Positions 2,592-59,105 of a stretch of DNA of 64,000 nucleotides are shown here, in pieces. Source of the DNA: Watersipora subatra. Taxonomy: Eukaryota; Bryozoa; Gymnolaemata; Cheilostomatida; Watersiporidae. The DNA lies in contig NC_088708.1 of NCBI RefSeq assembly GCF_963576615.1, forward strand, positions 3,906,001 to 3,970,000, written 5' to 3'. The first letter of the stretch is position 1; each line of letters opens with the position of its first letter. The position numbers and the translations under genes were made by a program. The notes beneath the pieces were generated by a model. That model saw only the letters and a program-made list of their open reading frames with translations. It made no database searches and was not told where the DNA came from.

Positions 2592-2715
2592 GGAGTGCTT
2601 GTATTAACAGCAGGATGGATGTTTGAGTATTACCTCAATGTACCTATTTAAAGGGGAGTGCTTGTATTAACAGCAGGATGGATGTTTGAGTATTACCTCA
2701 ATGTACCTATTTAAA
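2592..2715 (+). repeat. 61-bp tandem duplication beside the TUFM acceptor
   Basis: Two nearly identical copies, 2592-2652 and 2655-2715, both begin GGAGTGCTTGTATTAACAGC and end CTATTTAAA. The second copy ends 22 bases before the exon at 2738, so the duplication includes the branch-point neighbourhood of that acceptor and is probably recent. Confidence 0.9.
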
Positions 2716-2737
2716 AAAAATTGTCGATTTATTACAG

Positions 2738-5700: not shown

Positions 5701-6105
5701 CACTCAAGAGGTTGTTTTGAGATCATAGTTGATTTTTATTGCTCTTTAAGCTTTCACGGTTGTAGTTGACAGATGTTAGCGATCTGACTGGCACAGCACA
5801 TTGCAACAGTTGCCTTATTGTTAGGTTTATCATACTTCACTCAAACTGAGTTGTTTAAACATCATTCATAGGGTTTGTGCTCATGTAATCCCTCACTTAG
5901 GTATGATCCTTGTACCAGTTGTATTTCCTCATCATAGGTTATGGAGAAAGGTGGACGATTTACTTTGCGAAGTGGAGCTAAAACCTTGGGCTATGGCGTT
6001 GTGTCGAATATTTTGCCTGATATTGATATGGACATTTATGAGGCTGAGAAGAAAAAAGTGAAAAAGGCTGAGAAGAAAGCCCAGGAGGCTGAAGGTTATG
6101 CATAA
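2738..6105 (+). CDS. TUFM: mitochondrial elongation factor Tu (3' six exons, N-terminus outside window)
   Basis: GTP-binding factor that delivers aminoacyl-tRNA to the mitochondrial ribosome. Exons: 2738-3009, 3477-3638, 4098-4230, 4701-4805, 5323-5648 and 5938-6105, all with AG/GT borders and consistent phases, giving 387 residues to the TAA. Seen: the [13 protein letters not shown]...GITINAA stretch that leads into the G3 motif DCPGH, the G4 motif NKCD, the G5-type SAL, then the two beta-barrel domains ([38 protein letters not shown]). The G1 loop and the mitochondrial transit peptide must be encoded left of the window. The protein ends in an unusual lysine-rich tail ([20 protein letters not shown]) in place of the short end of human TUFM. 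Fourth intron donor is GTTAGT at 4806. The gene converges tail-to-tail with the CARD gene at 7523. Identification is secure; the start is missing. Confidence 0.95.
3678..4046. repeat. minisatellite in TUFM intron
   Basis: About a dozen degenerate copies of a roughly 30-bp unit built on CTCCTTGTATATAACTACAG fill most of the intron between exons ending 3638 and starting 4098. Copies towards the right end are more diverged. No coding potential. Confidence 0.85.
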
Positions 6106-11451: not shown

Positions 11452-14400
11452 TTACTCTTTCCCACTGACAGACTCCTCGAGGCTGTGCAATATCCTCTTC
11501 AAGTCATTCGGAGTGAATGCCTGCAACAAACAGTGTTGAACAAATGAGATCTCAAACTGCTATTCAATAAATATTTAAAAAAGTAGCCTGTCTAGCTCGC
11601 GAAGAGGAAACGAAATGTGACGACATGAACTCTGACCTTGTAGAGCTGATAGTTCTCCGATTGGATGATATCTATGAGCTGTTTCAGCTCATCCTTTCGC
11701 TGCGTTTCATCAAGAATCTTATGCAAAAGGGAGACAACTTCTGGTATACAAAGTTGCCTCAGTCTAGTCAGTTGCTCCTGCCTAGCCAGATAGTTGGGGT
11801 CCTCAGATTCTCCTTCCGACATGTCCTCCATCCAACCACCAGCAAAGAGCAACACAGCTTTCAGCTGGTCTATCGTGTGCTGTACAAAGAAAACGAGACC
11901 ATCTCGCTCTAAGATATACTTGCATCGTACCAACTAATGGAGTATGAAACTAATAGTTAAGTAAGATGAACCTGACTTGGTACATCTGATGAGCATTCAG
12001 TTGAAAAAAACATTATCGATTCCTGATTAAAAGATACCATATATAAAAATCGAATGAATAACAACTCTCAATATAGTAATATGTATTTATACACTAGCAT
12101 TTACATAATGTAATTATGTCACACAGTATCTGAAGATATGATGTATTTGTAGACTAGACAGTGTATGATGCCCTTCTTTGCTAACTTAGACAGAATCTAG
12201 TAAAAACTGACCTCCGTAGAGGCTATCAGTGCATTTTGCCATCGCTGTAAATCATGCTCATACTGTTTCATCTTGTGTTCTAAAGTGACAGATTCAGCAA
12301 AATGCCTACTGGCATTGTTGGCAGGTTTAGTAGGTGCTTGATGCAGGTGAGTAAACCAATCATCGAATGCTTGCAGGGCCTCCTGTAAAAACCACAGTGA
12401 ACGATGACCCGCTGTAGTGAAAGGGAGCCACGCTCAAATTAGAGATTCTCAAGAGAACACTCCGCAAATGGTGAATGAATATAAGACTTAACTATAGAAA
12501 AATAATTCGTGTTAGCAGCGGTTACATTTCATAAGATAAACTATTAACTAGTTTACCAAACCTCTCTGACATGGCTTATTGCTATTGTCACAGAAGTTGA
12601 ACATGACACTCAGAAGACAACTATTGAATCTGATAGAGTGGTTCAACTTAGGATGGTACAACTGGCTAAACTAAAGAGAAGACAACTTTGTATAGGCTGA
12701 GGAAAGCTGACCAACCAAGTAAGTCCTGAAGCAGATGCATTCTTTAATAGCGTTTGAGTCGTCCATGAGTTGCATGTCCTCCTTCCCAGCAAGAGCCCTG
12801 CCTATGCAGTCAGCTGGCAACTTGGAATAAACCTCCTTCAGTCTCTGGTGATCCTTTATAGCTATAGAACACAATAAATCATGATTTACATGCGATACAT
12901 GTTTGTTCCCTGCTACAATAATTTCTTTCCAACTTTAACAATACAATTTAGAAAATATCAAGACTCAGTGCTATATATGAATAAAGTCAAACTTCCCGGT
13001 GGACTTTTACCCATGATGTAAAACTTGGTAGCTGCAGCGAGAGATGAACTCAGGCAATAAGTAACAGATAAACATGAGCAAACACCTTCAGATTAATTCT
13101 GTCAAGTCTGCGGCATTTAGTCATTACTAGCTTACTAAAAACACACTTGAAGCAAAGTTTTAACCTTTTACTAAACTTGCTTTAATTTTGTCGTCTTTAT
13201 AATCTGTTTCTGGTTCGGTGCTTTTTGCCTCGCATTCACTATACTTCTAGCCAACCTTTTAAAAAACTTTTTTAAACTTATTTAATAAGAAATATTGAGC
13301 GACGCTGTTCTCGAAAGTGGTCTCTCGGATACTTCGCCATGTAGTGGCCATTGAGAACCGGCTCGTAGGCTCATATCTCAATGATTACTCGTATCTGAAA
13401 GAAACTTAGTTAAAATGCTGCTCGTATCTAGATTTCCTAGCATGTTGAACACTCATAAGTTGAGGTAAGACTGTAATGTTGAACACTCATAAGTTGAGGT
13501 AAGACTGTATTGTTGAACACTCATAAGTTGAGGTAAGACTGTAATGTTGAACACTCATAAGTTGAGGTAAGACTGTAATGGAATAATAAAAATATATTTT
13601 TATAAATTAGAACCTTATTCGGTTTCTTACCCATAATTCATATTTCAACTTTAGTCTCTTACGTAATTTATATAATGTAGGCCTACTTGTTTTAATGCTA
13701 TATATGTAATTATCTGAAACGTTTATCTTTAAGTTTTTGAGCTATGGAATGAATTAAATGGAACTCAATATGCTCTTACAAGAATAATTGCTCCGACATT
13801 GACTGCTTTGACATACAAAACAGTGATATTAGAATAGATAAACTTCATACGCCGAGGTTTGACTGTATGATCATCATCAGTGATTACTCAGTCCTGTCAA
13901 AAGGTCTAAGAATATCAAGTGCAGAAGGACTGACGATATCAACAGTACATGGTGAGAGAGAGGAGGCAGTCTAAAGAGAACGACTGAAGAACTTATTGAA
14001 CCAGCCTACTGTGCAAGAGTCCTCTCTACATATAATCACTACGGTTCAGACCATTCTAAGCATCAACCTTCTTATAATATGCTAATATGTAGATGCATGT
14101 TTGGTCACAACTTCAACAGCATTTATTGTTTGAACACTAATGAGCAATCACAGGTGCCATTGCTTATGACTGTTGACCAATGAGTTGACAGTTCACTAAC
14201 CATGAGTTGTCAGTTCACTAACCAATGAGTTGTCAGTTCACTAACCAATGAGTTGACAGTTCAATAACCAATGAGTTGACAGTTCACTAACCAATGAGTT
14301 GACAGTTCACTAACCAATGAGTTGACAGTTCATTGACCAATGAGTTGACAGTTCACTGACCAATGAGTTGACAGTTCACGAACCAATTGACAGTTCACTA

Positions 14401-17400
14401 AGCAGCATAACTGTCAAAGCACTGTTGACAGAATCAACAGAACCTCAGGGTTGTGCGAGAAAAGATCTATTTCCTACCTAGAAAAACCCTCATCTGGGCA
14501 TTGCATTGATGGATGCAGTCCATAATCTGCTCTGGGTCAATCAGTAGCCACTCAAGGCTGTCAATAATACTGTCGACCTATCAAAAATAAATTATTACAT
14601 GTATTTATGCATTGGCATACTCTATTTTAAAGCCGAAGCTACACTTTTCATGTTGCTTTAAGATGCACCGAGCAGCAGATTTACTGATTTATCAGAGCTG
14701 TGACCTTCATAATAAAAGGTCAGCCTGAGGTGAGCTGTCTACAGATCTGCACCTTGTAGATCATGAGTCTGAGTTATGGTAGCGAAAGGACTAGCGATCC
14801 AACATCTCAACGTTATAAAAAAATCATGGATTTGTCAGATGTACATAAGATGGTCTGTTTCCTTTGAGAGCATTGAAAAGGTAAAAAGTCATACCTGCGG
14901 CCTGTTCTCAACGCTGATGACCTCATTTCCAGATGCATGGATGTCTATCAGATTTTTAAGTTTTACTAATGAGTTTTCTGTCACAATCCTGGTGATGGTA
15001 GACATGTCCAGACCGGCTTGTTTGCCCAGAGTCAAAACCATGAGTCTATCATCCTTCTCCTTCACACCTGTCAAACATGAGATATTCCACTGGGCTTTAA
15101 AAATGAAATTTTAAATTGAAGGGTAATAACTGAACAAGTAAATGTTTGTCAACATTCCATTTGTCTTTTCTTTAGTGGCTGTAGAACACATTTCATAAAT
15201 ATTTAGAGCTTGCATTCAAGCAAGTAGGACTCGTTCCTTAGCAATTGTTCTCAAGTCTTTCAGAACTAAATGTTAACTCTACGGTAGTAATTTGTGTTAT
15301 GCAAGAAAGCAGCAATTTATCAGGAAGCTGGCTTTTATTAAAGAGAATGTCTGGCATCAACGAGCAAAGTTTTGTTCCAGAACTTTAGTCGAAAAAGGAT
15401 ACTAAAGAGCACCATTGAACTGATTCTCGTACTAAACATGTTTGAGAAGGTAAAAGACGGACAGGAGGCAGCTAGTAAATCATAATATAGGCACGCACTT
15501 TCTAAAAAGAGGCCGTAGGTGATGAGTTGACTCTCTCTTGGAAGCACAGCGCAGTAAGTAGCCACTAGCTTATACTGCTTACTGTCCATCAGGTATCTCA
15601 TATATCCCTCTACCAGTTCACACACCTGCAAAACATGTCACCATCATTTAGCCCCTTCACAGAATATAACCGGATAGAGAAGACAAGTATAAACATACAA
15701 AAATACAAGCGATTGAGAAGTGTTTGTAGTGAAGTGGATGAAGTCATCTCAGCTCTTCAAAGTCACATCAATCTACATAAAGTGTTGATAGATACTCACA
15801 GACTCCTCCACGGCAACTTTATCCATGCTTCTGAGAAAGAGTACAAAGTGAGCCATGAAACGTAATATGTGGGGTGAGAGTGTGTTGCCCCTCTGTGCAT
15901 CCACCATGACTTCCACTAAGGCTACAATCAATAAAGAAGCTGTCTTAGAACTACAAGTTACTTTATTCTGTAGCAATTTTATGCTGAGAAATATGTGTTA
16001 GTCGCTCACTTGAATGCCATTAACCATTCAACTCATATAGTCATCGCCCTGACATAACTAGGCAATTGTTATATGTGCACTAAGTATGTGTGACCTTGAA
16101 GCAATGTTATGGGTGGTCCAGCTGATGCTATCTTTATGACTCATCAGTACTGATCAAGCAGCCTAGCTAAGCAGTCGTCTTGAGTTATCCTTGTCAACAT
16201 TCATACAATAAAACCACCTTGAGGAAACTCCACATTATAACAGCAATACCATGATCATACACATCCATTCTCATAGGCTAGCAATGCTATGTTTATGGTG
16301 CAGACATCCTGAATACGAGACTTTAGCAAATGCATCTGCCAGAGTCAAACAGGTCAAGCAGGTCACATACTAGAGTCGAACAGCAAGGATTCAGTGGTGT
16401 AATCAGCAGGTCACACACCAGAGTCGCACAGCAAGGATTCAGTGGTGTAATCAGCAGGTCACACACCAGAGTAGAACAGCAAGGATTCAGTGGTGTAATC
16501 TAGAGGTGGAACGGGATAGGTTTTTTAAGTTCGAGACGAGACTCAATTGTAAAAATTCGAGACTCGAGACAGTAAAATAATGAGCATTTGGTGATGATTT
16601 CACAACACAAGGACTAGCGCACTTGATATATGAAATTGATAAACCTCTTTTTAAATTGAATTTTCTGCTGGTGTAAACGATTTAAATACAACATTTTAAT
16701 AGCAATATGCATGTATTTTTTGTAAACAAAAGTGAGTTAAGTGACACAAACAGCTCTAAAATAGCAAAATTATATATTTCTAAGAATTTGGAGCTTGATT
16801 GATAATAATTATTATAAACATATTGCTTTGTACATGCATATTTTTACCATCTATTGAATAGGTCTTACTTTATATTGTAATGAAATGTGTAATGAAGCCG
16901 ATAGCCAGATCTACAAAGTGCCGCAACTAAAAGAACACACAATAACACTTTCATTCTCATTGGTTCATTTATGTTAAGTTTTGTTTGTGTATTAACAGTA
17001 GTATGTGAATTATATTTAAATTTTACTCATGAAATTATATGAATTACTGTATATATTTTTATATTTAACTAACGATAATGTCATTGTTACCCAGAACGCG
17101 GACTATGGTCGACACAGCCTTTTGTTCGTTTCTTTGTGTCTGGGCAAGTTTTACCTGCAATTGGTTGTATATAAAAGAAGCCTGAATTTTATGAAGGGCA
17201 GTTGGTGTTTGGACACGATACGATAAAATACAGATATTTTACCCGCAAGTCTTATTTATTAAACTGGATTACCCGGAGGGCAATTGGATATGAGCTGGTA
17301 TCTTTTTAAGGACACAGAACCAGACTACAATATATTAACAGGGTCATTGTCAGGACTACATGATTAGACTCGGCGGCCAACATAATCAATAACAACAGGT

Positions 17401-20400: not shown

Positions 20401-23400
20401 TCTAATTACATCATCGCTATGGTGAATGACAATCTATAATATACCTTGAGATGTGCCCAGAGAGCATCTGTCCAATTATCACAGACAGCAAGCACCTGCT
20501 CCAAGTTGCCAGAAAGGCTGGCATAAATGGCCTTCTCATAAGTTGAACATGAATCCTGGCAAATATAAATATGCATGAAAGCCTCTAAGTGTTTAGTACT
20601 AGTATAATGACAACTGTAACACCTGACTAAAAATTGGTTGTTGTATACAAAATATTATTATTAAAATATTATTATTTAAAAATTATTTTTTAAACAGTTT
20701 CATTAGCAAAAGTTTTAAATTCACATAAAAGCCATTTACATATTCACCATGCAAGTTTGAGCAAGCGTCTAATACTACCTCTTGTGAAAGAGACCAACAG
20801 GTAGACTTCCATACATCACGAAACTGGTTGCCAGTTGAGTCCAGCTGTTCGTCTACATCACTGGTAAAGTTGGGATCATGAGAGAGCTTCCAACCTTCTA
20901 GAGTCGCCGCCCTCCATGACTGGCCACAGCTACAATATCCATTCATATGAACATGGTGTGCCTCACACACAAAACTGTAACACGAATTTCATTGGGCTCA
21001 AAATGCCCATAAATTATAAGCCTCTAACAAATATGTTTTTAATACTTATCGATTTTAGCTAACAACTAATCATCAATGATCATGCAAGCTACCAAAATGA
21101 GTTACTGATTAGACATGATAGAACAGCATAATGGTAAAATGAACAATCACAGTGTGAATAAGATATGAATTAGAATTCACTGTAGAAGTGCCCAATTTTA
21201 ACATACATATGGCGAAGGTTTTACATAATTATATCAACCTTGAAAAGTGAATTGCATAAAATGAAAAAGTACAAATTTCTCATGCTAAAACAAGACAGAC
21301 ACAGAGTGTACAACCCACCGCACGCATAACTGATGTGCCTCTTCTAGCTTTCCAGCCCTGAGTAGAGCAAATACATATCTCACTAATCGGTCATCATCCT
21401 CTTGGTCAAGGCTGGCCAGCCGCTGACCGGTTCGGTGAGGAGCGTCAGGGTCCTGAAGTGAATTCAAACAACGACTGTATGTATCGTGCTAAGATTATAC
21501 TATTTGGTCTTTTGGGAGCTTTCACATCAACACTTTACTCTCACATGATACACAAAAACAACAGGCATTCTCCTAGCAAAGAAAGTCTCATAGAAAGTGC
21601 GATAATAGCTAACCAGAGAAATGTCGATAATTTCATATACATTAGACGCTTCTACAATGTAAATAATCCGTTCCAGGAACATTTCCGTTATAGGAATTCT
21701 ACATTATACGATCAGTACGGCAAGTCGTGCAAGCAGGGCAGGACAGTGTGGACAAGTGGGGCAGGGCAGTGTGGACAAGCGGGGCAGGGCAGTGTGGACA
21801 AGCGGCGCAGGGCAGTGTGGACAAATGAGGCAGGGCAGTGTGGACAAGCGGGGCAGGGCAGTGTGGACAAGTGGGGCAGGGCAGTGTGGACAAGCGGGGC
21901 AGGGCAATGTGGACAAGTGGGGCAGGGCAGTATGGACAAGCGGGGCAGGGCAGTGTGGACAAGTGGGGCAGGGCAGTGTGGACAATGCGTGCAGTCCCAA
22001 GTGCAACAAGAGAAAAGTGATATTTTATGGCCAACTGATATTCTTGTTAATCAAATAGAATTTGAGAACTTGCTCCGACTTGACACTACGTTATGTGGAA
22101 TAAAATGACTAGCATAAGCATACCCTGATAGCACTTAATAAGTAATAATTCAGTAGCTGATGTGCAACTCACCAAATATTCCACAAGAATCTCTGCCTTC
22201 TTAGAAGAAGACTTTTTGAGATGCAGCGTGTTCTCCCTGTAGAAAGGAGACACGTGAGCCGAAGGTACAGAATTGTACATATACTAAAAACTCTTTTGTA
22301 CAAACTCTGTACATGCACTTTTGAAAGTAAGAGAACAGTTAGCGGTTGTAGAGAAGCGAGGTTCCTACAAAATCAAATATCGGAGATGTAAATATTGATC
22401 AGAAGAAAGCCTAGACTCACCACATGACACTAGACTTCTCCGAAAAATATTGCACTTTGTTATAGAAATCGTCAAGCACATCCTCGCTGTTCATCATCTC
22501 AAGCCAGTCAACCACAATCTGGCACCGTCTAACTTTCTCATTATCGCTGAAGAACTGCTCCATCAGTTGTCTGTTGGTCATCACCTGAAACGAAGTGAAC
22601 TGCAAGTCTAGCTACTCATCAGCGAAGATAGCGCAGACTGTGACTAGCTGCGGTGGCTGAAGCTGACAGGTGACCACAGGTGCTCAGCAATGCTATTCAT
22701 TTATATAGAACACAAACCGTCTGCTCTTCATCCTCCATCATCTCCTCATCAGGCCTCAGCTCCATATCTACGATGTCCTTGAGAAGTGAAGCTGCTAACT
22801 GCCACGTCCACATTTCTGATCGCAAGTTCGTGTGCAGCTGCAGAAGACCTGATATTCTGTAAGACACAAATATTCTCATTATTTGCGTCTCTCTTCATTC
22901 TAAAACCTGACTTACTAAAACAAAGATAAAACTGGTAGAAAAATTACTTTATTGATTAGTAAGTTTACATGCATCTGTGTGTAGCTTGTGGTAAGCGCAT
23001 TCACCTGGGGGATGTTTAGTCTCAATGGCATGAAAAAACCTTGTTCCTAGTTAATCTCTCACAATTGAATTTAAATTATACTTCCTAACACAATTAACAA
23101 GCTGTCTAGCTTTTTGGTTTATGAAAGACCACTTCCAAAAAATGTTGAAAAACGAAAGGAGTGACAAGTGCGAGATTACCGGTGTCGAGATGCTGTTGTG
23201 CCCTTTATCAGTGATTTGGAAATATTAGTTATAGTACTGAGAACAGTACTGTAGGCCTGCATCATATCAAAGACTTGACTAGGGGCAGAATTCCTTCGAA
23301 ATATCTCCTCAAAATGTTCAAATATCTCGCTGCTTTCTAAAATTGCAGAGCTACTAGTTGATACTGTCAAAAGGCGACACCTGAGTGATTAAAAACAGAG

Positions 23401-30984: not shown

Positions 30985-31365
30985 ATAGTAATCAGTGTTT
31001 TTCACACTGTTATAGAACTTACAGCTAGTCTGTGATTCAGTGTTATTCTCACTGTTATAGGACTTACAGCTAGTTCGTGAGTAATCAGTGTTATTTACAC
31101 TGTTATAGGACTTACAACTACTCTGTGAGTCATCAGTGTTATCCACACTGTTATAGGACTTACAACTAGTCTGTGAGTCAGCAGTGTTATTTACACTGTT
31201 ATATGACTTACAGCTAGTCTGTGTCATCAGTGTTATTAACACTGTTATAGGACTTACAACTAGTCTGTGAGTCAGCAGTGTTATTAACGCTGTTATAGGA
31301 CTTACAGCTAGTCTGTGAGTCATCAGTGTTATCCACACTGCTATAGGACTTGAAATTAGTCCGTA
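30985..31365. repeat. 48-bp minisatellite, about seven copies
   Basis: The unit contains GTTATAGGACTTACAGCTAG and TGTGAGTCATCAGTGTTAT. Because 48 is a multiple of three, the minus strand reads as a 16-residue peptide repeat (SCKSYNSVNNT...). No start signal, splice context or homology supports a gene. Confidence 0.9.
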
Positions 31366-32204: not shown

Positions 32205-32735
32205 TGTGCTTGTTCTACTAGTCAGCCCTTGTCCTACTAGCCAGCCCTTGTCCTACTAGCCAGCCTTTATCCTACTAGCCAGCCCTTGTCCTACTAGCCA
32301 GCCCTTGTCCTACTAGATAGCCCTTGTCCTACTAGTTAGCCCTTGTCCTACCAGCCATCCCTTGCCCTACTAGCCAGCCCTTCTCCTACTAGATAGCCCT
32401 TGTCCTACTAGCCAGCCCTTGTTTTACTAGCCAGTCCTTGTCCTACTAGCCAGCCCTTGTCCTATTAGCCAGCCCTTGTCCTACTAGCCAGCCCTTCTCC
32501 TACTACATAGCCCTTGTCCTACTAGTCAGCCCTTGTCCTACCAGCCAGCCCTTGCCCTACTAGCCAGCCCTTCTCCTACTAGATAGCCCTTGTCCTACTA
32601 GCCAGCCCTTGTTTTACTAGCCAGTCCTTGTCCTACTAGCCAGTCCTTGTCCTACTAGCCAGCCCTTCTCCTACTAGATAGCCCTTGTCCTACCAGCCAG
32701 CCCTTGCCATACCAGCCAGCCCTTACCCTACTAAC
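32205..32735. repeat. 19-bp minisatellite, about 27 copies
   Basis: Head-to-tail copies of CCAGCCCTTGTCCTACTAG with variants such as CCAGCCCTTCTCCTACTAG. A block of several units is itself repeated (near 32340-32460 and 32520-32640), showing segmental duplication within the array. It ends about 400 bases downstream of the macro-TIR stop codon. Confidence 0.95.
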
Positions 32736-33141: not shown

Positions 33142-36100
33142 TCAGAGAAGCGCACATGAGTGGGAAGCCGTGGGTTTTTCACCTTTGGCATATCTGCTCT
33201 TTAAACTCTCTATGTTCTTTTCTCCTCGAGACTGGTTTCCATTTTCCTGCAAATACCAATGATGATGCCTTTCTAAATAACAATGATGCAGTAAAGATAT
33301 ATGTTGAAAATCAATGAAGTCAATCTGTCTGAATTCCACCCATTCATAAACGCAGAGTCTAACCCTACATGACCAGGTTGGTCTTGCTTACTTTGGTATC
33401 TTGCGGTTGAGGGGGTGCGGTGTAAGATTTAGCTATGGATTCAAGAGCTGCCACTTGCTGCTTTTCTGTAGATTCATTGTCTAACACGACCTCTTTGATG
33501 ACAGCAAACGTATCTATTAGGACCATGCTCTTGACTTCTCTGTGAACAACAGAAATTTTAAGTGAAGCTCATAATTGATAATCAATTTTATAAATGCTCT
33601 AAAGCTTCACTAAAACAAGACTTACACTAGACAAGACTTACGCAAATACTGCTCGCAAGTCTAATTATACGTAGAGTCTTGATTACTAGTGCACGTGACA
33701 GTAAGCTATATATAATATCAGTTTATACAAGTCTGATAATGTGATACTCGCTTGCCATGTTTGCTCTAGTTGTTAAAAAGTTTTGTGGGTTTTTACAGAG
33801 TTCATCAAACTATGACGAACCAACAATTAGTTCTGCTCCCAAGTAGAGTTGAAAACTTGAACACCCACTTCATCAGATATAATGCATGAAAGCTTTCTAG
33901 ATTTGCAAATGCCTGACTCATGGAGTACGTACTCAGCTTGTGTTAGGTGGTGAGCGATACGGTTGCAGACAGTCGCATAGAACTTTAGTCGTTTAAGACT
34001 TGCATCCTTTTCCGTTCTAGCCAACTGCAATGCAGGATCATCTTCTTCTTGAAGGTAGGCCTCCGTGTGCTCATCTTCAAACTCCTGTTGCAGCTTAGCA
34101 CATTTCACCATTGTCTCCTTGTAGTTATCATGGCTTTCCATTGTTTGATCTAAGAAAAGGCTTCACACGTAAACGTCCTGCTGTAATTGTACTCCTAATA
34201 GATGTAACTTATTCACACTCAAATGATTAGCTGGGCTATTGGTTTGATTTCACTTATTTTTGTCAGCTTTTTTCAGTCTATTTCGTCCTTTGCTTAGTTC
34301 TCGTAAAAAGCTTGCGGTATTCAATTTAAACCAGAATAAATTAGAAAAAAATTAGGTTACGACAAAAAGGGTGCTGGTATACACCTGACAAGTACCTAAA
34401 CCCAAGTGTCACAATGACAAGTACCTAAACACAAGTGTCACAATGACAAGTACCTAAACACAAGTGTCTTAATGACAAGTACATAAACCCAAGTGTCAAA
34501 AATGACAAGTACCTAAACGCAATTGTCACAACGACAAGTACCTAAACACAAGTGTCACAATGACAAGTACCTAAACACAAGAATCACAATGGCGAGTACC
34601 TAAACATAAGTGTCACAATGACAAGTACCTAAACACAAGTGTCACAATGGTGAGTACCTAAACACAAGTGTCACAATGACAAGTACCTAAACACAAGTGT
34701 CACAATGGTGTGTACCTAAACACAAGTGTCACAATGACAAGTACCAAAACACAAGTGTCACAATGACAAGTGTTTTAGCACAGGTTTTACCGTGAGAAGC
34801 AACTAAACACAAGTGTCATTAAGAAAAGTACTTAAATATGAGTGTTTTTGCTGAAATGGACATACTGGCCATACTTCACTCACCTACATTCACGTTCATC
34901 CAAATGGGGTCAGTTAGGCAAACCTCATATAACAGCAGCTCGCAGTACACATGGTAGTGCTTTAAACTGATCCCAAGTGAGCTTCCCAGCAGTACAGGAT
35001 ATAGCCTGGTACAATCCCCTACAGCAAGTCACTTGTTGCAAATTCATTTTGGCATATGCATCTGAATAGATACACTGATAAAAATGTACATGTACATCAG
35101 CAAAATCTTCAAGAATGTGCAATTTATTAAAAATCAAGTATGATGTTATACCATAGCGCTGTCTGTTTATAGCCACTTGTAGCTCCTCAATAAGGTCACT
35201 GTCTTGCAGCAGACTAGCTGAGACAAGTACAACAATGAGAGTAGCTTCGTCGAGCTTTTTCACATTAGTCGCAGTGTCATAGTCTGCACTCAGTTCAACT
35301 CTGAACTCTATCAAAGAGAAAAGTGTGTAAAAGCTGGTTGAGCAGAGTTGGAGGAAAGAAACAAGAGCAGGATAACTAGAGCAATGCCATAAATATAGAG
35401 TTAGAACTCCTGAGTGGTCGAACTCATCTTTGTCACACCTACAGTTTACTAAATACCTTTGTAGTCACGAACTTTCATAGATCCAAATTGATCGAGAAAA
35501 CATCTTTTGATTTCTTTTGCGATTTGCAAATCATAATCATCTTTGGAGGATAGAATCTGTATCCTCACAGATTCCGGCATCTTTTGAGGATTAAAAACTG
35601 GCTCACTTTCTATGATTTTGCTGAGTTTAGTGCATCGGCCATCTTCAAGCAGCCTCGCCAAGTTATAGGTAGTCTGCAACGAGCAGCACTGATATGATGG
35701 CAGCGAGGAGGGAGGTGAGCAATTCTATACAAGATACTAGTAAAATGATTGTTGTGACAAAAACTAGTCAAAATGATTACCTTGTTTAGAGAGAAGCACA
35801 AACCATCACACTTCCCTTCTTGAAGATAATCTCTAACAAGCGGAACAAAGTACTCGGTGATGTGAGTGTATCTGTCTTGGTTTCCTAAAACGCTGTTGTG
35901 CAGAGCAGAGTATCTGTCTGGTAAGGCATCCATATCCATTTCCTCTATCCGCACTGGGAGCAGATGGTACCTTTTCTGAAAAATGTAATCTGGCTGATTA
36001 TTACAGCAAATATTTTTGAACTATCCAACACTATGATTAATTTTAAGGGTTATCTCATCTTAAACAAAGGGTAGACAACTTGAAATATAGTGCTTTTGCA

Positions 36101-39100
36101 TGATCTGCGATATAAAACAACTAACATCAGTAAAGTGTCTGGCTATAGAAAGCCTAAACTCTTCATCGCACATGCGAGAGTTGAGATAGGCTGGGGATAT
36201 GAGCGCTATCGTCATTCTGCTAGACTCCAAGGCATGGTATAACTTTTGCTGCCAAGACCCACCTAAACACAAAAGTTGAGAGGCTAATTGTGTCCCTCAT
36301 GCATTTAATTAAACATTGTATAGAATCAGGGCACTCAATATACAACACATATACACACACAAGTCCAACTACTTTAAATAAATCATACCAGTTCTAAGTT
36401 CTTCCCTGTCAATAAATATTTTAACAGCCGGAATCTTCCGCTGTAATTCCTCTACTAACAGCTTGCATACTTCCTCGTCAGCATGAGCATATGACACGAA
36501 CACATCATAAGCTTTCTTTTCATTTTCACCCACATCGTCTTCTTTAGCTTTAGTTCTAGATTTTGCAGGTCTAAAAGAGAGTAAGATGAGGCTTTCTGTC
36601 GTCCACTTCAGATACAGTCTGCGCCGTGCATATTTTAAGAAGGTGACTCACCTAACAAACACAGCGTGACTAGCGGTTTCGGCAGAAATATCAGAACTAA
36701 ACTCTTGGATGTAGCCAACTACATAAAGAGTGATGTTGCGCACAAGTCTCTCAGTCTGTCCATTCTGTAATCTGTAACGTATGGATTACTAGATAAATGT
36801 CCGGCGTTGCACTGGTAATAAAAACCAGCTCATAAGCAGTGGCAGGTAATGCACTTGCCATTGGCTAATTTAAATAAGCTAGCATATGTATTTCTAATTT
36901 TTTTAATGAGAGCCGTGAGAGCAAGCTTTAGTGACATTGCGGGTAACACAGCATTATTATGCGTATTTTAACCCAGATAATGACTATCTTCCCAATGAAT
37001 CCATTGTATCCCATATAGCCTAATGGGTTAGTTAATCGTCTTGTGAACGGGAGGTTCTGAAATGAAATTCTTTGCGATGTAGATTTTAATGGCTATATTT
37101 CAATCGCTATAACTGGAGATACGGATGAAAACAAAAAGAGAAACTCTGAGATTTATATATACAGCTACAACCTAAATGTATACTAGGTAGTGACTTGACC
37201 ACTCTGGTTTTCACAACCTTTAAAAACGCTTTTCTCACCTGATATCTACCCACTGAATAAGTGACATGTATGTAGGCAGCCCAGCAATATCCTGGCAAAG
37301 CATCGGAGCCAGCCTAGTTGTAGAATCTGGTTTCCTGTTTAGACACCAAGCTGTATTGTATTCCTCGACCCTGTCTCCATCAGCTAAATAGGAGGGACTC
37401 AAGAAAGCCACAACTCTACAATTTAGAATAGGTAGAGCAACATCATAATGTGTCAATGCTCACCTCGTAATAAAGAAGAAAATGAGTTTAACCATGCTTG
37501 TCATGCAGTTGCCTACCTTTTACAAGTTTTCATTATGTCAAAGAGTTGTTCCTGTGTCAGCTGTTCTTGAGGAGAATCTCCACGATTTTCAGCCATGAAA
37601 AATTTCAGATCGCTTTTGTGCTCCAAAAACATGTTTTGAACTCGCTCAGCATCAGAACTATCCTCAGACACGTATGACAAGTAAAAGTCAAACTTTGGTA
37701 CTGAAGGTCGGATTGATTTGAACCTCATCATAGCTCCTGGCACTAAACCAGTTATAACCGATAATATGATAGCTGAGTAGGAACAGGCATTAAAAGGGCT
37801 GAACCATAATGAGTGATTGGAACAACCAAATATAGAGTAGAATAGTGGGAAATGTGTCAATACTAGATACTTTAAAGTAAAAGAGTTGAGAAAAACACAA
37901 TCACTTGTTTTGACAGATCATACAATGCTACAGAAGTTATCAACTTACATCTGTTATGCTCCCGTTTTAAGAGTCTAAAGGTCTCAAGAATCTCATCATT
38001 TCCACGGTAGATGACAAGTTTAAACTGCTGAACGCTGAGACCATTCTTCATCCAAACAACGGCATTACTTACGATTGCCTTTAACATTGTTGTCTCATCG
38101 TAGCGCTAGCAAATAGTTACCAACAAAAACTCCGTACAACTGGCAATGACTGAGTACAAGGCTGGTTGCAGTTAATGCTGTTTACTCACTCTCTACTCTG
38201 CTAACAAAAAGACAAATTGCGTGATTGACTGACTAACGCACAAGTATTATTGGATGGGATTGAATGTAGCCGTAGAGTTAAATATAATAAACTATAATTA
38301 AAAAAACTGTATGAAGTTGAGCAGAGTGCATATAATAAATTAGAATTTAATAAAAATTCGTTAAGTAAAGTCGCATATACTTGAGTAGAGTTGCCTATAG
38401 CTACAGTAGTAGTGCTGTAGCTATAGTCAACTGTAGTACTGTAGTAGAGTTGAATCTATGTAGATATAGTAAAATATAATTGAATGAAATTGAATGGTGT
38501 ACCATGCGGTTGGATAAACTGGCATATAGTTAAGAAGAGTCAAATATAGTTGAACAGAGTCTAGGTAAATATAATCAAATATAATTGCATAAATTTAAAT
38601 AGAGTAAAATATAGTTGAGTAGAGTTAAATGTATTTGAGGAGAGAGTTGAATATAGTTGAATGTAGTTCAATATAATTGAGTGGAATTAAATATAATCGA
38701 ATAGAGACAAATTTAGTTAAGTTAAATATAGCTGATAAGAGTTTAAAATATTTGAGGAAAGAGTCGAATATTGAGTTGAATATAATTGAATAGCATTGAG
38801 CAAAGTTTAATGTAATTGAATAGAGTCGGATATAGTCGAGTTGCAGAAAGTTGGTTAAAGTCAAATGTAGTTAAAGAGAAACGAGTGTAGTTAGGTAGAG
38901 TTGAATAATGCAAGCTAAAGTTGAATATGCTGATTAAAGTTGATTTAGTTGATTAGAGTTGAACACAGTTGAGTAGAGTTGAATATACCTAATTAGATAC
39001 ATGTAGTCAAATAAAATTGATGAAAATTGAATATAGTTGAGTAAAGTGCTACATAGCTGAATAAAGTTAAATATGTAAGCAAATGTAATAGTGTTTTCAT

Positions 39101-40891
39101 ACAAAAAGTGTTAAGTTGAAGGCTCTAAAAACTTTGTACCTGATTGCCGGTGTTCAGTAGAGGAGAGACAATTATTCCTTCTGAAAACAGGCCGCATGCT
39201 GGAACTAAGGCTTTAAATATTGCTTGCACTGCCTTTTCTGGTAGTAAATGTGATGTACCCGACTCAAAACACAAAATCCTTCTGTAACAAGCAAACAAAC
39301 TCACTACAACAGATCATTGACATTTGTTGAGGGTGATGATACACTTTTACCATTTGATTTCTAATCGTGATCTATACTAGCCATTTACAGACCTAAAAAG
39401 AACAGAATGATGCAAATGATGTTTGACTTGCTCAACTAATCTACCTTTCTAGCAACACGCTTCTCCATGAATCACTCCTAAAATTTTTTAGTGATTTGGA
39501 AAAGCTGCCTATCACTCCTTCTCTTTCTTAACATGTTCTTCAATGCCTTCTCCTCATATGCCCTTGTCTAGCAATCTCTCTAAAGTGTAAATCTCTCTCC
39601 TAACATATTCTCCAACGACATCCGATCTCTAGAGTGCTCCTTCTGAGTGTCTTTTTCAGCATTTTTTAAATATTTTACTTTGTAGACTCTTTTCAAGTGC
39701 ATCTTTCTCTAGTTTCCTTTTTACAAAACTTACTAAACCCTGTATGACAATATGCTATCTCTGGCATTTCCAACAACTTCTCAATTTAGATGCTTTAGTT
39801 AGATGTCAAATTTTGACTGACGAGGCACCAACTTGTTTAATCTTTTTCAGGGTAATACAAACTAATGATACGCAGAAGCCAAACTAGAATAATAGACCAA
39901 CCGAAAAGCCAAATGATCTGGCAGTGGGTTAGACCACCAGCAATGGAACAATTTCCTTAAATCTTCTTCTTTATTTGCCGCTAGCTTCGCGACACTTACG
40001 GATAAGTTGCGCTTAAGTGCACCAATCAGAGATGTCTTGGTTGGTATATAATCTCCTGAAAACAAAATTTAAGTAAATTTCATAAATTTAATGCTCCCTA
40101 AATATATGCAAACTTCTTCTACTTCTACATTCATTGTAGCTAGGTGGCTTTATTTGTGTTGTCTCAGCATGAAAAAAAGATACCACTAATTTCTACAAAC
40201 TCTTTGTTGATGCATGCCTACAATGTGAGTTGATAGACTTTTGATAAATTAAATTATTTTTGCAACTGCTGTCTTAGTGACTGTTTAAAACCTAGTTAAC
40301 CATCTTGTTCCCTGAAGATTCTGCTTACAAAAGAGTCGATTATTAAAACTAAATAGCAAATAAGCCGCAAACCAAATTTTGCTGCTAGTATGATATGCAA
40401 AATAAACAAGCTCAGTAAAAAAGTTTGAATCTGATGCTTTACCTTACAGTTACGAGAAGAACATTTTTACTTTGAATATACTGCAAATGAGAGCCTTTCC
40501 CTACTTATGTGCTTTAAACCATACTTAATACTACATGTCATATTTATAACGTCAATGTGCTGCCTTAGCATCACACCATCATATGTACCACTTTAGGCAA
40601 AAAGTGTGTGTGCATTATAATAATGGCGTAGGTGTGTGGCATATGATATGTGTATAGGCATAATGCATGTATAAATTTTATTATGGCATAAAATCTTTGC
40701 CACACGTTCGCAAGAACATTGAGATGTTCAAAAAATTGAATAAATATCTCACCATGATAAGCAGATACCATGAGTATGTCTGCTCTTGGATTACTAGGCA
40801 TGCTCGTGATATCTCCATAGTAGAGCTCTATAACTTTTGAGCCAGTAGAAGTATCAAATTCTATCTTATCTTTTTTCTGCAATTCCATCAT
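33142..40891 (-). CDS. macro-like domain, three TIR domains, C-terminal CaaX box
   Basis: Fifteen exons: 40753-40891, 39902-40055, 39140-39281, 37949-38105, 37517-37742, 37239-37415, 36652-36771, 36389-36570, 36126-36262, 35781-35975, 35457-35673, 34951-35307, 33933-34149, 33392-33539 and 33142-33246; 890 residues. Residues about 15-195 are macro-like (IELYYGDI, ADILMVSA, RILCFES, PLLNTGNQ). TIR1 about 208-330 (FDFYLSYVSEDS, VVAFLSPSYL), TIR2 about 390-500 (YDVFVSYAHADEE, DREELRTGGSWQQ, IALISPAYLNSRMCDEE), TIR3 about 580-720 (IQILSSKDDYD, TLIVVLVSASLL). Each TIR keeps Glu after the serine-rich strand, where TIR NADases have the catalytic Glu. Residues 735-860 are helical and unknown; the end is CALL. 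TIRs signal by oligomerising or cleave NAD; macro domains bind ADP-ribose. Immune role is inference. Donors at 34950 and 33932 were picked by phase; both exons could run longer. Extra 5' exons are possible. Confidence 0.82.
34395..34790. repeat. 29-bp minisatellite in macro-TIR intron
   Basis: About thirteen copies of a unit containing ACAAGTACCTAAACACAAGT and TGTCACAATG, in the intron between exons 34951-35307 and 33933-34149. Copies near 34600-34740 alternate between two variants, which suggests a two-unit higher order. Confidence 0.95.
38270..39080. repeat. degenerate AT-rich array in macro-TIR intron
   Basis: Diverged copies of a roughly 20-bp motif close to GTTGAATATAGTTGAATAGA fill most of the intron between exons 39140-39281 and 37949-38105. 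Divergence implies an old array. No coding content. Confidence 0.75.
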
Positions 40892-48054: not shown

Positions 48055-48179
48055 AGTGGCTAGTCAGCGCTGACTTCCACAACATTGGTGGCAGCAGTGA
48101 GATATCTGTAATCCTTTTGCTACTGAAAGTTTAGCTGTACGCACAACCTAGTAATTGTTAAACAGATCTCTGGAAAGAG

Positions 48180-48872
48180 ATGGCTCAAGGCACAGATCAT
48201 CGAATGTCTACTAATCCATTCCTGCCGATCAGTAACCCATTCTGGGACATGGCTAATCCATTTAGTGATACTGCTGAAAACTGGCCAAAGCAGATCATGC
48301 ACTCCGATACATCAGTACACATTGATGGGGCAACCTTCATTGACGATGTGTACCAGCAATGTGTGTTGGATCTGCAGGACAGACAGGCTACCAGCAATCG
48401 CATATTGTCTCCAGCAAATAATGAATTAGCTGGTCATCAACCAGTACAAACACTAAGGATGACAGATCTTCCTAAAGTTACCCAAAGAGAAAATATGAGG
48501 GATGTTAGCTGCGGGTCTGCAGAAACTTACACTGACTGCGATAAGACAAATTTAGCTGCTGTGCTACGTTCAATTTCACTAGAAATGGCCAAACAGACCA
48601 AGCTGATAAAAGATCAGTCTGCCAGAATTGCTGCTCTAGAGCAAAGGAGACAAAGCGATGACAAAGCCAATGGCAAATATCGGAGAGTCAAATGTTGTTT
48701 CAGATGTGGAGACTCCTCACATCTAATAAGGAGTTGTACGGTACCAAAGAAATGGTCACAGCCATCCATAGGCCCTAATCGGGAGAAGCGACAAAGGTTG
48801 GCTCCTAAGATTATAGGTAATTGGTTAAACCTGCCTGTGTCCTATGCCAATTACGACAAATCAGATGAATGA
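48180..48872 (+). pseudogene. gag-like frame with one zinc knuckle (fossil)
   Basis: A 230-residue frame rich in Gln, Asn and Asp, with a coiled-coil-like stretch around residues 130-160 and a CX2CX4HX4C zinc knuckle at about residue 180 (CFRCGDSSHLIRSC). It follows the left LTR by about 125 bases and reads as the nucleocapsid end of a gag. Rest of the interior to 49716 carries no supportable domain. Confidence 0.65.
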
Positions 48873-51289: not shown

Positions 51290-54200
51290 GCGCTCTAAGA
51301 TTTTCGGGCATTATAAAAAGCTATGCGGACACCAGTGGAGAATTCTTTGTGTGGATTAAAAAATTAGAGCTTGTAGCAAAACGGCAGGATGTGACCGACA
51401 AACTAAAGTTTTTGCCATTGTTCTGCAGTGTATCAGCAGTTGAGCGATGAAGTAAAGGCTGATTATAATAAGCTGAAACATGAACTGAGGTCTGCATTTA
51501 GCATTGATGTCTTTTCATCATATGAGCAGTTAAAAAGCAGAATGTTTTCAAAAGGTGAGTCTGGATGTATATTTAGCTGACTTGAGGCGATGGATGAATT
51601 TAATGGGAGAAACCAAGCTAGATCCTTTGCTAAGATGTGTTTTTGTTGCTTTGCAGCTAAAATCAATTGTAGATGTTGCTAGTATGGAATTGCCTGCCCT
51701 AGTGAGTAAGGCCAGACCTATGTTGGCTTCAAGGAGGAGCAACTACCAGCTTTGTGTGTGCTGGGTTGAACAAAGGTGGAGCCATACAATGTTATAATTG
51801 CTCCGGCAGTGGGCACATGGCCCGTCAGTGCCCTACAGGAAAAATTGACAAATCTGCAAGTAATCATAACCAGCATGTTCATAAGTACTATGTCTGTGAC
51901 TCGACCACTCATTTGGCCAACAGGTGTCCTGAGCGCTTGAGAAATGCGAAAGGGGGAGCATGTGTCAGATTTTCGCCCTGCGCGACAGCAATAGATACAG
52001 CGCTCTTTGATAATGAATCTCCTAATCAATTGTGTAGAAATTCAATCATTAGTAGACGCTGGGTTGTCAACAATCTGTAGTGAGTGTCCAGGCTCTGCAG
52101 GTTTTGGGTATTAGATACAGCGCACGTCGTACAATTGTGATATTAGATGTTAAAACCACAGAGTGCCTAGGGAGGTAGATTTGCACATTGGCATTGGGGA
52201 AAACACAGTTAAGCTCTGCTGTTTGGTTTCTATACCTTTAGTGTGCGACTTAGTAATTATTTGGATGGATGCAGTGAAAAGATTGGGAGTCGTGAGTGTA
52301 AGCCCTGTATATGTGCCATCTTTTGGGGTTCGCAAGGGTGCAGAGCCAACAGTTGCAGTAGGCATACGCAGAAAACTTGTCGGACTACAAGTTGAGGACA
52401 CTGATTTCATAGCCACATTTGATGAGAAGTGGACAGTAGCATGACAATGGAAGGACGGAGAACCTGTTCTGAAAAATCAATGTGGGCAGTACAGCATGTC
52501 AGATGAGTGCAGAGAAGGTTATGAGCAGGAAGTTGAAGCATGGATTGATAGTGGATAGTTGGAAGAGCACGATGAAGTAGTAAATGCCAAAGTTCAAGGC
52601 ATTATACATTACCTCTCATGGCAGTGCTACAAACAAACAAGGCGAGAAAAATTCAGTCAGTGATGAACTACAGTCAGGAATTGAACCAGCATATAGACTG
52701 CAATCCAGGTGCAGATGTAGCCATCTGTCAAGACAAGCTGCGAAAATGGTGAAAGGTTTGACCCAACTGTTGTATGCTCGACTTGAAGAAAGCCTATATG
52801 CAGTTGTATGTGAATAATGAGCTTTTAAAATTTCAGGCTTCAAGGTACAAAGAAAAGCTCTTGGTGATGACACGGATGGGCTTTGGGCTTAATGCGGCAC
52901 CTAAGATCACGTCAAAGGTGATAAGCAAGGTACTTTCATTGGATAGTAAGATTGAAGCAGGTACTGATCATTATATAGATGAAATAATTGTAGATAACGA
53001 TATAAAGTTTCAGTAGCACCTGTAAGGGAGCATCTCACCAAGTATGGCTTAGTGACTAAGGAGCCTGATGCATTGATGTTGCTAGAGTTTTGGGGCTCTG
53101 TGTTAAAAGAGATGAGTCCGATAGACTTCAGTGGTGCAGAGACAATGGTGTTGGTGAAAAGACAGAGAGCATGACGGAAAGGGAATTGTTCTCCTGTTGA
53201 ATTGTGTGGGAGGCTCATAATCTACTATCCAATTGGTGATTGGTTGAGGGTGGCCTGTAGTTACATGAAGAGAGAAAGTAACGAATGTGGCTAAAATGTG
53301 ACAGTTCTAGGAGCCAGTTCATGTAATGAATGATACATGATACAATGAAGATGCTGAAGGAAAAAGACTCAGTAGGTGGACAGTAGTCAGTACCTGACAA
53401 GAGACGTGGAACAATATTATTTTTAATAGTGTGACACAAGCAACCTGGCAGTTGGTGGGTCTGTGAAGATTGATGGGCCACAGGTGGAAGATTGCTGCTG
53501 GTTATGCAAAGATGATGGCAACCATATCAATGTCGCAGAGCTGGATGTAGTAATATGAGGTGTTAGTTGTGGAGTAAAATGGGGCCTCACGTCAGTATGT
53601 GTGATCACCGACTCAGCTACCGTGTATGGTTGGGCCAAGTCTAGTATCGCCAACAGTAAACGACCAAAAGCATGCAGACTGGGAGAGATGATTACTCGAA
53701 GGATGCTCAGTATGATTGCCAAGTTGATAGAACTATACAGCTTAGATGTAGAAATGAATTCGTAAAGTCGGAAGAGAACTTAGCAGACACGTTGACAAAA
53801 GCTCCTAGAAAAAGGCTAAAGGATCGAGTGGGTGCTACAGCGGTGGTCAGCATGAACCCTGTCCAAGCAATCAAAGATCTTCATGACACTAATCACCTCG
53901 GAGTCGATAGGACATTTTATTTAGCCCGTCGAAAATAGGGTGACTCAGTGTCAAAGAAAGATGTTGAACAGGTGGTTAAATAGTGTCATGTCTGTAGGCA
54001 AGTAGATTCCTCACCGGTGAGATGGGATTGTGGAGAACTAGCTGTTAAAGAAATGAGGGTAAGATTAGTATCAGACATCACTCATTACCGAAGAATCCCT
54101 TACTTGACAGTAGTTGATTGTAGACCTAGCAGGTTCTCATTGTGGAGACAGCTGAGGTGGTATTGAGAGAGCTCAAGCAAATATTTTATGAACGGGGTTC

Positions 54201-58464: not shown

Positions 58465-59105
58465 TTACCTTGTGGCAGATCTGTCCAACTGCTCGCTACA
58501 GACCTGTCCAACAGTCTATTGCAGATCTGTCCAATGGAGCAGATCTTCTCTAGATTGTCGGACAGATTGGCCCAATAGCCTGTTGCAGACCTGTCCAAAA
58601 TTTTGCTGCAAACCTGTTGGATAGCCTGCCACAGACTTGTCCAACAATCTGCTTCAGATCTGTCCCTTAATCGACATGAGATATGTATAACAATCTGATG
58701 CAGACCTGTCCAACAGTCTGATGCAGACCTGTCCAACAGTCTGCTGCAAACTATTTCAACAGTCTGCTGCAGACCTGTCTAAAAGTCTGCTACAGACCTG
58801 TTCAACAGTCCGCTATAGACCTGTCTAGCAATCTGCTGCAAACATGTCCAACAGTCTGCTGCAGATCTGTCTAAAAGTCTGCTACAGACCTGTTCAACAG
58901 TCTGTTACAGACCTGTCTAACAATCTGCTGCAAACATGTCCAACAGTCTACTGCAGATCTGTCTAAAAGTCTGCTACAGACCTGTTCAACAGTCTGTTAC
59001 AGACCTGTCTAACAATCTGCTGCAAACATGTCCAACAGTCTGCTGCAGATCTGTCTAACAATCTGCTGCAAACATGTCCAACAGTCTGCTGCAGATCTGT
59101 CCTAC
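58465..59105. repeat. 23-bp minisatellite with four-unit higher-order repeat
   Basis: About 28 copies of a unit close to TCTGCTGCAGACCTGTCCAA plus CAG. Between about 58750 and 59040 four different variants recur in fixed order (about 92 bp per block, roughly three blocks). The array ends about 155 bases before the Ashwin start codon. Confidence 0.95.

What the first reader, a model, noticed from the sequence alone, without database searches (positions are those of the whole stretch)
33142..40891. Macro-like domain fused to three TIR domains and a CaaX box
Seen: one 15-exon frame-consistent gene with a macro-like N-terminus, three TIR modules and CALL at the end. Known: TIR domains can hydrolyse NAD to ADP-ribose species (SARM1, plant TIRs), and macro domains bind ADP-ribose. 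Inference: the protein could couple NAD cleavage with ADP-ribose sensing, a self-contained NAD signalling receptor. All three TIRs retain a Glu at the position where NADase TIRs have theirs, and TIR2 also has a canonical BB-loop. I do not recall a characterised protein with this order.
Basis: partly seen in the sequence, partly recalled or inferred. Interest (0 to 1): 0.85.

Follow-up and report, generated by a model that had tools for sequence, protein, structure and literature searches.

The report
Divergent macro–TIR protein shared with prokaryotes
A gene of an unidentified animal-like genome encodes a divergent macro domain joined to TIR immune domains, and the same two-domain pairing turns up as a small, undescribed protein scattered through bacteria and archaea, which suggests a shared but untested immune sensor.

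Summary
The gene is real: minus strand, 40891-33142, GT-AG introns, open spliced frame. The N-terminus is a divergent macro domain: no hit in Pfam, NCBIfam, PADLOC or PHROGs, but profile comparison, a PDB profile search (26 of 26 hits are macro domains, some so identified by recall) and the AlphaFold model of a bacterial relative agree. TIR1 and TIR2 are solid, TIR3 is degenerate. The last exons and the CaaX box are unproven. The macro+TIR order is not new: 26 of 28 prokaryotic loci found encode this domain followed by one TIR, some beside defence-type genes. The animal-like protein adds TIRs. Canonical macro Asn/Asp positions are replaced in 29 of 29 sequences, so ADP-ribose binding cannot be assumed. 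The TIR Glu also aligns in TLR2 and the WxxxE Trp is missing in 26 of 26 relatives, so NADase activity is undecided. Best reading (inference): a cytosolic immune receptor built on an ancient prokaryotic macro-like-TIR module, with Thoeris-like logic in one chain.

The parts
40753..40891 (-). exon 1, start ATG; macro-like domain, strand with GDIT motif (aa 1-47)
   Evidence: GT donor, frame; 5 of 26 prokaryotic homologues hit it by tblastn
39902..40055 (-). exon 2; macro-like domain, signature DYxPTxxSLIGAL...DLR...CWxS (aa 47-98)
   Evidence: 25 of 26 prokaryotic queries hit it, best 1.1e-12 at 62% identity
39140..39281 (-). exon 3; macro-like domain, loop-2 NTGNQ (aa 98-145)
   Evidence: 3 of 26 queries hit
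37949..38105 (-). exon 4; end of macro-like domain (aa 146-198)
   Evidence: 3 of 26 queries hit
37517..37742 (-). exon 5; TIR1, first half (aa 198-273)
   Evidence: Pfam TIR_2 2.4e-10 over TIR1; 5 of 26 queries hit
37239..37415 (-). exon 6; TIR1, second half with Glu (DRVEEY) and LPTYMxLIQ..DxR tail as in prokaryotic proteins (aa 273-332)
   Evidence: 10 of 26 queries hit; alignment A4
36652..36771 (-). exon 7; end of TIR1 and linker (aa 332-372)
   Evidence: frame and splice sites
36389..36570 (-). exon 8; TIR2, first half, BB-loop region IDREELRTG (aa 372-433)
   Evidence: Pfam TIR_2 4.1e-22; 17 of 26 queries hit exons 8-9 together
36126..36262 (-). exon 9; TIR2, Glu in MCDEEF (aa 433-478)
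35781..35975 (-). exon 10; TIR2 end and linker (aa 479-543)
   Evidence: frame and splice sites
35457..35673 (-). exon 11; start of degenerate TIR3 (aa 544-616)
   Evidence: frame and splice sites
35152..35307 (-). exon 12; TIR3 core with DLIEEL (aa 616-668)
   Evidence: 11.8 bits to bacterial TIR profile; best of 1000 shuffles 8.4; no TIR hit in Pfam
34951..35061 (-). exon 13; end of TIR3 (aa 668-705); end uncertain, in-frame stop if read through
33918..34149 (-). exon 14 (uncertain), charged C-terminal region of unknown fold
   Evidence: codon score 0.28, reached by 1.3% of 229 intron windows; weak donor by eye
33392..33539 (-). exon 15 (uncertain); ends KTNLVM* if unspliced
   Evidence: codon score 0.40, above all 229 intron windows
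33142..33246 (-). exon 16 (unproven); ends SHSCALL*, possible CaaX box
   Evidence: acceptor TTTGCAG present; in-frame codon score 0.22 below its other frames 0.40 and 0.28
34386..34836 (-). 29-bp tandem repeat array, about 15.5 copies, inside the proposed intron 13

Best explanation
The gene encodes a cytosolic immune receptor or adaptor whose core, a divergent macro-like domain followed by TIR1, is homologous along its whole length to a small prokaryotic protein (macro-like domain + one TIR) that looks like a defence gene. Shown: the homology, the macro fold of a relative, two clear TIRs, and retention in the window of the macro-like residues that are invariant in the prokaryotic proteins. 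Inferred: the macro-like domain binds a nucleotide or NAD-derived ligand in a pocket of its own kind and thereby controls assembly of the TIRs. TIR2, the most canonical TIR, would be the enzymatic or filament-forming part; TIR1 and TIR3 would be scaffolding. It would thus work like a one-chain version of the TIR/macro coupling of Thoeris.
For: Macro superfamily: hhalign of the family profile (window + 28 relatives) against 9 canonical macro proteins gives probability 96.3, E 1.5e-9 over 163 columns; 50 column-shuffled controls reach at most 1.3, reversed 0.1, a TIR profile 0.2. The family profile against all PDB sequences: 26 of 26 hits at E<=10 are macro domains, 6 of them at E<=0.01, best PARP14 2.8e-5; the matches cover mainly the second half of the domain. 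AlphaFold model of L002 (pLDDT 89.3): among the 50 Foldseek rows shown, PARP14, AF1521, macroH2A, PARP9, YmdB, with TM normalised to single-macro targets 0.60-0.78. In four phylum draws the only weak hits (5) read by eye as canonical DIT...VNAAN macro proteins. Same architecture: 26 of 28 loci carry macro-like + TIR; of the others one is cut by a stop at the start of its TIR and one has DUF4145 instead. Window macro+TIR1 is 29-34% identical to 10 of the 26 aligned. Interchangeable partner domain (TIR, or DUF4145 in L029 and L039) fits a sensor-plus-effector plan. Defence-type neighbours in some loci: SLATT/DUF4231 (L009), patatin (L010), a second TIR protein (L019), TPR-S/MAP3K_TRAF_bd (L027). 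Patchy occurrence: full-length domain in 2 of 1,285 non-seed genomes. The 15 macro-part columns invariant in the 26 prokaryotic proteins are all kept in the window.
Against: No ligand, enzyme activity, expression or phenotype is known. Canonical macro Asn and Asp positions are replaced in 29 of 29. The WxxxE Trp is absent in 26 of 26 relatives. Foldseek of the bacterial TIR model ranks scaffolding TIRs (MAL, MyD88) above AbTir and SARM1. Of the 4 TIR columns invariant in the prokaryotic proteins, window TIR1 keeps 2 (by eye). Of 31 operon-like neighbours only 9 were scanned, picked by eye, so the defence context is selected. Of the 2 non-seed genomes with the full domain, only one (L045) has the TIR; the other (L039) has DUF4145. 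Among 398 Pseudomonadota genomes only the seed and one canonical macro matched, which argues against a widespread role.
Confidence: 0.5

Rival explanations
1. Non-enzymatic scaffold: all three TIRs only assemble signalling complexes, as in TLR/MyD88 signalling, and the macro-like domain is a protein-protein or ligand-gated regulator; no NAD chemistry.
For: Glu aligned in TLR2 as well; no Trp at the WxxxE position in 26 of 26 relatives; Foldseek top hits for the bacterial TIR model are MAL and MyD88 filaments; TIR3 is degenerate and TIR1 scores lower than TIR2.
Against: Fold ranking does not separate scaffolds from enzymes: AbTir (rank 7), RUN1, SPARTA and SARM1 (rank 32) also match, and Cat1, an NADase by recall, is the second-best profile hit. 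The Glu is invariant in 26 of 26.
Confidence: 0.35
2. One reading: the macro-like domain recognises ADP-ribosylated proteins or nucleic acid made by antiviral PARPs and recruits TIR signalling.
For: Macro superfamily membership; nearest structures include PARP14 and PARP9 macro domains.
Against: The hydrolase Asn and Asp are replaced in 29 of 29; all 28 relatives found are prokaryotic, though only prokaryotic and viral collections were searched.
Confidence: 0.1
3. Two genes: macro-TIR1-TIR2-TIR3 ends at the stop in exon 13 (near 34926), and exons 14-16 with CALL belong to another transcript or are not coding. (This concerns the gene end only and can be true together with the best explanation.)
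For: In-frame stop after RAAVI; unusual donor 13 (GTGTAC); exon 14 has its own ATG (MESHDNY) 8 bases in; an 801-bp intron with a 29-bp repeat array separates them.
Against: Exons 14 and 15 score as coding in the frame that continues the chain; acceptors of exons 14-16 look good by eye.
Confidence: 0.45
4. Decaying gene: a formerly active receptor, now drifting.
For: Long branch of the window protein (3.94) in the tree; TIR3 degenerate.
Against: No stop or frameshift in 13 exons; the macro-like residues invariant in the prokaryotic proteins are kept.
Confidence: 0.05

Closest known systems
Thoeris defence with TM-macro ThsA and TIR ThsB (Shi et al. 2024, PMC11204291; abstract, outline, passages and section 7 seen)
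   Same: Couples a TIR that uses NAD+ with a macro domain that binds the nucleotide product (ADPR, IAD).
   Different: There the TIR and macro domain are on separate proteins, and ThsA has transmembrane helices. Here the domain is not recognised by Pfam's macro models, has lost the canonical Asn, and is fused to the TIR.
Metazoan TIR-STING fusion (PDB 6wt6, seen as a hit; bacterial TIR-STING named in the abstract of PMC13142454)
   Same: One chain with a nucleotide-sensing domain (recalled) and a TIR, found in bacteria and animals.
   Different: The sensor is STING, not a macro domain.
SARM1 / tir-1
   Same: Animal intracellular protein with a TIR related to bacterial TIRs (hits; origin discussed in PMC13142454 section 5).
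   Different: ARM-SAM-TIR layout (recalled); no macro domain.
Macro domains of PARP14, AF1521, YmdB
   Same: Fold and profile.
   Different: NAAN/GGG loop replaced by SAF/SAY...DYxPTxxSLIGAL; own invariant set Y49, W86, S88, E104.
Uncharacterised animal TIR clades 10-13 of the TIR atlas (Culbertson et al. 2026 preprint, PMC13142454; abstract, outline, passages and section 5 seen)
   Same: Diverged TIRs common in non-model animals, not yet studied.
   Different: A search of its main text for 'macro' gave only 'macromolecules' and 'macrophages'; whether the window TIRs fall in those clades was not tested.

Membership tests
macro domain superfamily | macro fold | tested here: met
   AlphaFold model of relative L002 and Foldseek hits; profile evidence. 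The window's own spliced protein was not folded.
macro domain superfamily | Asp of GD(I/L)T that contacts adenine | tested here: met
   D27 in the window; 26 of 29 D, 3 of 29 N
MacroD/YmdB-type ADP-ribosyl hydrolase | NAAN Asn and GVD Asp | tested here: not met
   YmdB N22, N25, D35 align with window V42, Y45, I57; in 29 of 29 rows none is N or D
macro domain superfamily | binding of ADP-ribose | not testable with these tools
   needs protein
Pfam/NCBIfam/PADLOC/PHROGs families | a curated model matches the N-terminal domain | tested here: not met
   window domain: no hit at E<=10 in Pfam, NCBIfam, PADLOC or at 0.01 in PHROGs; in the 3-4 relatives scanned, hits lay in the TIR (or DUF4145) part or were below cut-off
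TIR domain | TIR model above cut-off | tested here: met
   TIR1 41.4 and TIR2 79.4 bits, cut-off 28; TIR3 not met
NADase TIR | Glu in the alpha-C helix | tested here: met
   all three window TIRs by alignment; 26 of 26 relatives; not diagnostic, also in TLR2
NADase TIR | Trp four residues before that Glu (recalled) | tested here: not met
   26 of 26 relatives lack it; window TIR2 has Met, TIR1 and TIR3 Asp
NADase TIR | NAD+ hydrolysis | not testable with these tools
   needs protein
Thoeris | separate TIR and ThsA genes | tested here: not met
   both domains in one ORF in 26 of 28 loci
Toll-like receptor | LRR ectodomain | tested here: not met
   no LRR hit in Pfam at E<=10 in the spliced protein; a transmembrane helix was not tested
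prenylated CaaX protein | C-terminal CaaX in the mature protein | tested here: inconclusive
   CALL depends on unproven exon 16

The most novel reading that the evidence does not exclude
An undescribed branch of macro domains, with its own nearly invariant residues (D48, Y49, K75, D78, W86, S88, E104) in place of the usual ADP-ribose loop, is the sensor of a one-chain TIR receptor kept across bacteria, archaea and an animal. It reads a different NAD-derived or nucleotide signal from the known macro and STING sensors and switches the attached TIR on or off.
Probability: 0.3. Interest if true: 0.85.

Novelty: new variant of a known kind. Interest (0 to 1): 0.6.

Why it matters
Sensor-plus-TIR receptors shared by bacteria and animals (TIR-STING, SARM1) have explained where parts of animal immunity come from. 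This would be a further one, with a macro-like sensor domain that four curated family libraries do not match. The prokaryotic members are small (24 of the 26 in A3 are 328-389 aa with the starts I chose), so the ligand and the enzyme question are directly testable.

Tried and rejected
Searching the window's own genome: none is held. Finding relatives with the window sequence alone failed: genome contigs, 54 pattern matches, 0 confirmed; PDB, 0 hits; plasmids by tblastn, 3 Rhodococcus rows at E 9, taken as chance. A bacterial member against plasmids gave no match at E 1e-5. Viral contigs gave nothing. Placing the window in a tree: long branch 3.94, no supported group, so neither horizontal transfer nor vertical descent is claimed. 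Paralogues in the window: none; two stray matches at E 0.1-0.2. Rfam and tRNA scans of the window: no hit. Glu conservation as proof of NADase: rejected. MacroD-like hydrolase: rejected. Literature: 'macro-TIR'/'TIR-macro' 0 papers; in broader searches I saw only titles and abstract starts, none of which describes this fusion; two likely papers by Burroughs and Aravind are not held, so prior mention there cannot be excluded.
Full report
What is in the sequence. A gene lies on the minus strand from 40891 to 33142. Donors 13 (GTGTAC) and 14 (GTCAGG) look weak by eye and I picked them to keep the frame; donors 2 and 9 (GTTGGT, GTTAGT) are also unusual. No other copy lies in the window. Support that does not depend on my model comes from tblastn of 26 prokaryotic homologues against the window: they hit exons 1-6, 8 and 9 (one alignment runs through exon 7), only on the minus strand, and nothing else at E<=1e-3. 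Exons 10-16 have no such support. The introns argue against bacterial contamination. Neighbouring genes (EF-Tu, a Death-domain exon, Nup84/107 exons) suggest an animal, but the species was not identified.

The N-terminal domain. It has no hit at E<=10 in Pfam, NCBIfam or PADLOC, none at 0.01 in PHROGs, and none by single-sequence search in the PDB. A search with widened patterns found 28 prokaryotic loci with relatives at 32-48% identity, bacteria and archaea (46 stretches matched, 28 confirmed). The profile of the window plus these 28 (A5) matches 9 canonical macro proteins at probability 96.3, E 1.5e-9, against at most 1.3 for 50 column shuffles, 0.1 for the reversed profile and 0.2 for a TIR profile. 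Against all PDB sequences 26 of 26 hits at E<=10 are macro domains, 6 of them at E<=0.01; I count the VTC4-macroH2A fusion, the AF1521-based designed hydrolase, 1spv and two viral polyproteins as such from names, or by recall, and the matches cover mainly the second half of the domain. In draws of 395, 301, 195 and 398 genomes, 5 weak hits beyond the full-length ones read by eye as canonical macro proteins; not all first-look candidates were scored in every genome, so these tallies are lower bounds. The AlphaFold model of the L002 protein (pLDDT 89.3, pTM 0.85, 26-row alignment) matches macro structures by Foldseek (50 of 1,339 rows seen; TM to single-macro targets 0.60-0.78); the SPX entries 5iit and 5lnc in that list are macroH2A fusions, while I did not check 7d3y. 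The window's own domain was not folded.

What differs from usual macro domains. The GDIT Asp is kept (26 of 29; 3 Asn). YmdB Asn22, Asn25 and Asp35 align with window V42, Y45 and I57, and none of the 29 rows has Asn or Asp there; among the 9 canonical controls these positions are N in 9, N in 6 and D in 6. Instead the family has its own set: D38, S43, A44, Y49, L60, W86, S88, E104, F120 in 29 of 29, D48 and D78 in 28 of 29, K75 in 26 of 29. The 15 macro-part columns that are invariant in the 26 prokaryotic full-length proteins are all kept in the window. So the domain is probably under selection and probably binds something, but what it binds is open.

The TIRs. TIR1 and TIR2 pass Pfam (2.4e-10 and 4.1e-22). 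Against the profile of the 26 bacterial TIRs they score 72 and 107 bits; TIR3 scores 11.8 bits over 36 residues, the best of 1000 shuffles 8.4. TIR1 shares the tail LPTYMxLIQ..DxR with prokaryotic proteins. Of the 4 TIR columns invariant in the prokaryotic set, TIR2 keeps 4 and TIR1 keeps 2 (by eye). The helix-C Glu is present in all three and in 26 of 26 relatives, but it also aligns in TLR2, so it does not prove NADase activity. The Trp expected four residues before it in WxxxE TIRs (recalled) is absent in 26 of 26. Foldseek of the bacterial TIR model (pLDDT 92) matches both scaffolds (MAL, MyD88 at the top) and enzymes (AbTir, RUN1, SARM1).

The architecture is prokaryotic. Of the 28 loci, 26 encode the macro-like domain followed by one TIR (TIR checked by Pfam in 3: L002, L008, L028; the others by alignment A3). 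L024 stops at the start of its TIR; L029 carries DUF4145 instead, as does L039 from a genome draw. Further macro-like-TIR copies: L042 (a second copy in a seed genome) and L045 (by eye). Window macro+TIR1 is 29-34% identical to 10 of the 26 relatives. The family is rare and patchy: outside the four seed genomes, the full-length domain was seen in 2 of 1,285 genomes, one with a TIR and one with DUF4145. Of 31 operon-like neighbours (mechanical ORFs), 9 were scanned, chosen by eye: SLATT/DUF4231 beside L009, patatin beside L010, another TIR protein beside L019, TPR-S/MAP3K_TRAF_bd beside L027 and an AAA ATPase beside L029 are, or may be, of defence type (in part by recall); the other L019 neighbour had only a sub-threshold TIR-like hit, L011's and L029's other neighbour gave no Pfam hit, and L018's is a DnaJ protein. 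The selection by eye makes this suggestive only.

Mechanism. Known logic: in macro-type Thoeris a TIR protein makes ADPR or a related dinucleotide from NAD+, and a separate macro protein binds them and oligomerises (PMC11204291; abstract, passages and section 7). The family here puts a macro-like domain and a TIR in one chain, and has DUF4145 in place of the TIR in two cases. I infer a sensor (macro-like) plus effector (TIR) plan, with extra TIRs added in the animal for assembly. Steps shown: homology, fold of a relative, domain order, residue retention. Steps inferred: ligand binding, switching, enzyme activity, immune role.

Gene end. Exon 13 would stop at RAAVI if read through, exon 15 at KTNLVM; exon 16 carries CALL. 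Codon scores support exons 14 and 15 and leave 16 undecided (E16 0.22 in frame, 0.40 and 0.28 out of frame). The test is weak: its null windows come from the introns that trained the background, and the well-supported exons 3 and 4 do not score best in their own frames either. The CaaX box is a possibility, no more.

Literature. No paper in the held library uses 'macro-TIR' or 'TIR-macro', and none of the titles and abstract starts listed describes this fusion. Passages seen in PMC8195603 (12 of 42 places), PMC9503650 (12 of 21), PMC7159879 (11 of 11), PMC7075850 (12 of 17) and PMC13142454 (6 of 6, plus section 5) do not mention it. Two Burroughs/Aravind papers are not held. I have a recollection, unverified here, of similar uncharacterised proteins in marine invertebrates; the bait rows were written from it.

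Verdict. The most useful correction is that the unusual pairing is a scattered prokaryotic module with an uncatalogued macro-like domain. New variant of a known kind, interest 0.6.

Noticed in passing
window 9724-10068, minus strand: Exon with a Death domain (Pfam 4.5e-10), a possible second immune or cell-death gene near by.
   Followed up: partly
window 11592-11933, 15338-15637, 20683-20988, minus strand: Exons of a Nup84/Nup107 nuclear pore gene.
   Followed up: partly
window 2671-3024, plus strand: EF-Tu-like GTPase exon, with what looks like its later part near 5283-5720 by eye.
   Followed up: partly
window 48162-48872 and 51706-52080, plus strand: ORFs with CCHC zinc-knuckle look, retroelement gag-like by eye; the first gave no Pfam hit at 1e-3, the second was not scanned.
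   Followed up: partly
window 32209-32733, 30987-31351, 58572-59102: Long tandem repeat arrays (19 bp x 27.6, 48 bp x 7.7, 23/46/92 bp).
   Followed up: no
L029 2635-3756 and L039: Macro-like domain fused to DUF4145 instead of TIR: the same domain with another partner.
   Followed up: partly
L027 1866-3302: Neighbour with MAP3K_TRAF_bd and TPR-S domains, an animal stress-kinase-type module beside a bacterial macro-like-TIR gene.
   Followed up: no
L023 5902-7479: Macro-like-TIR protein with a long hydrophobic insert between the two domains, possibly membrane-spanning (by eye).
   Followed up: no
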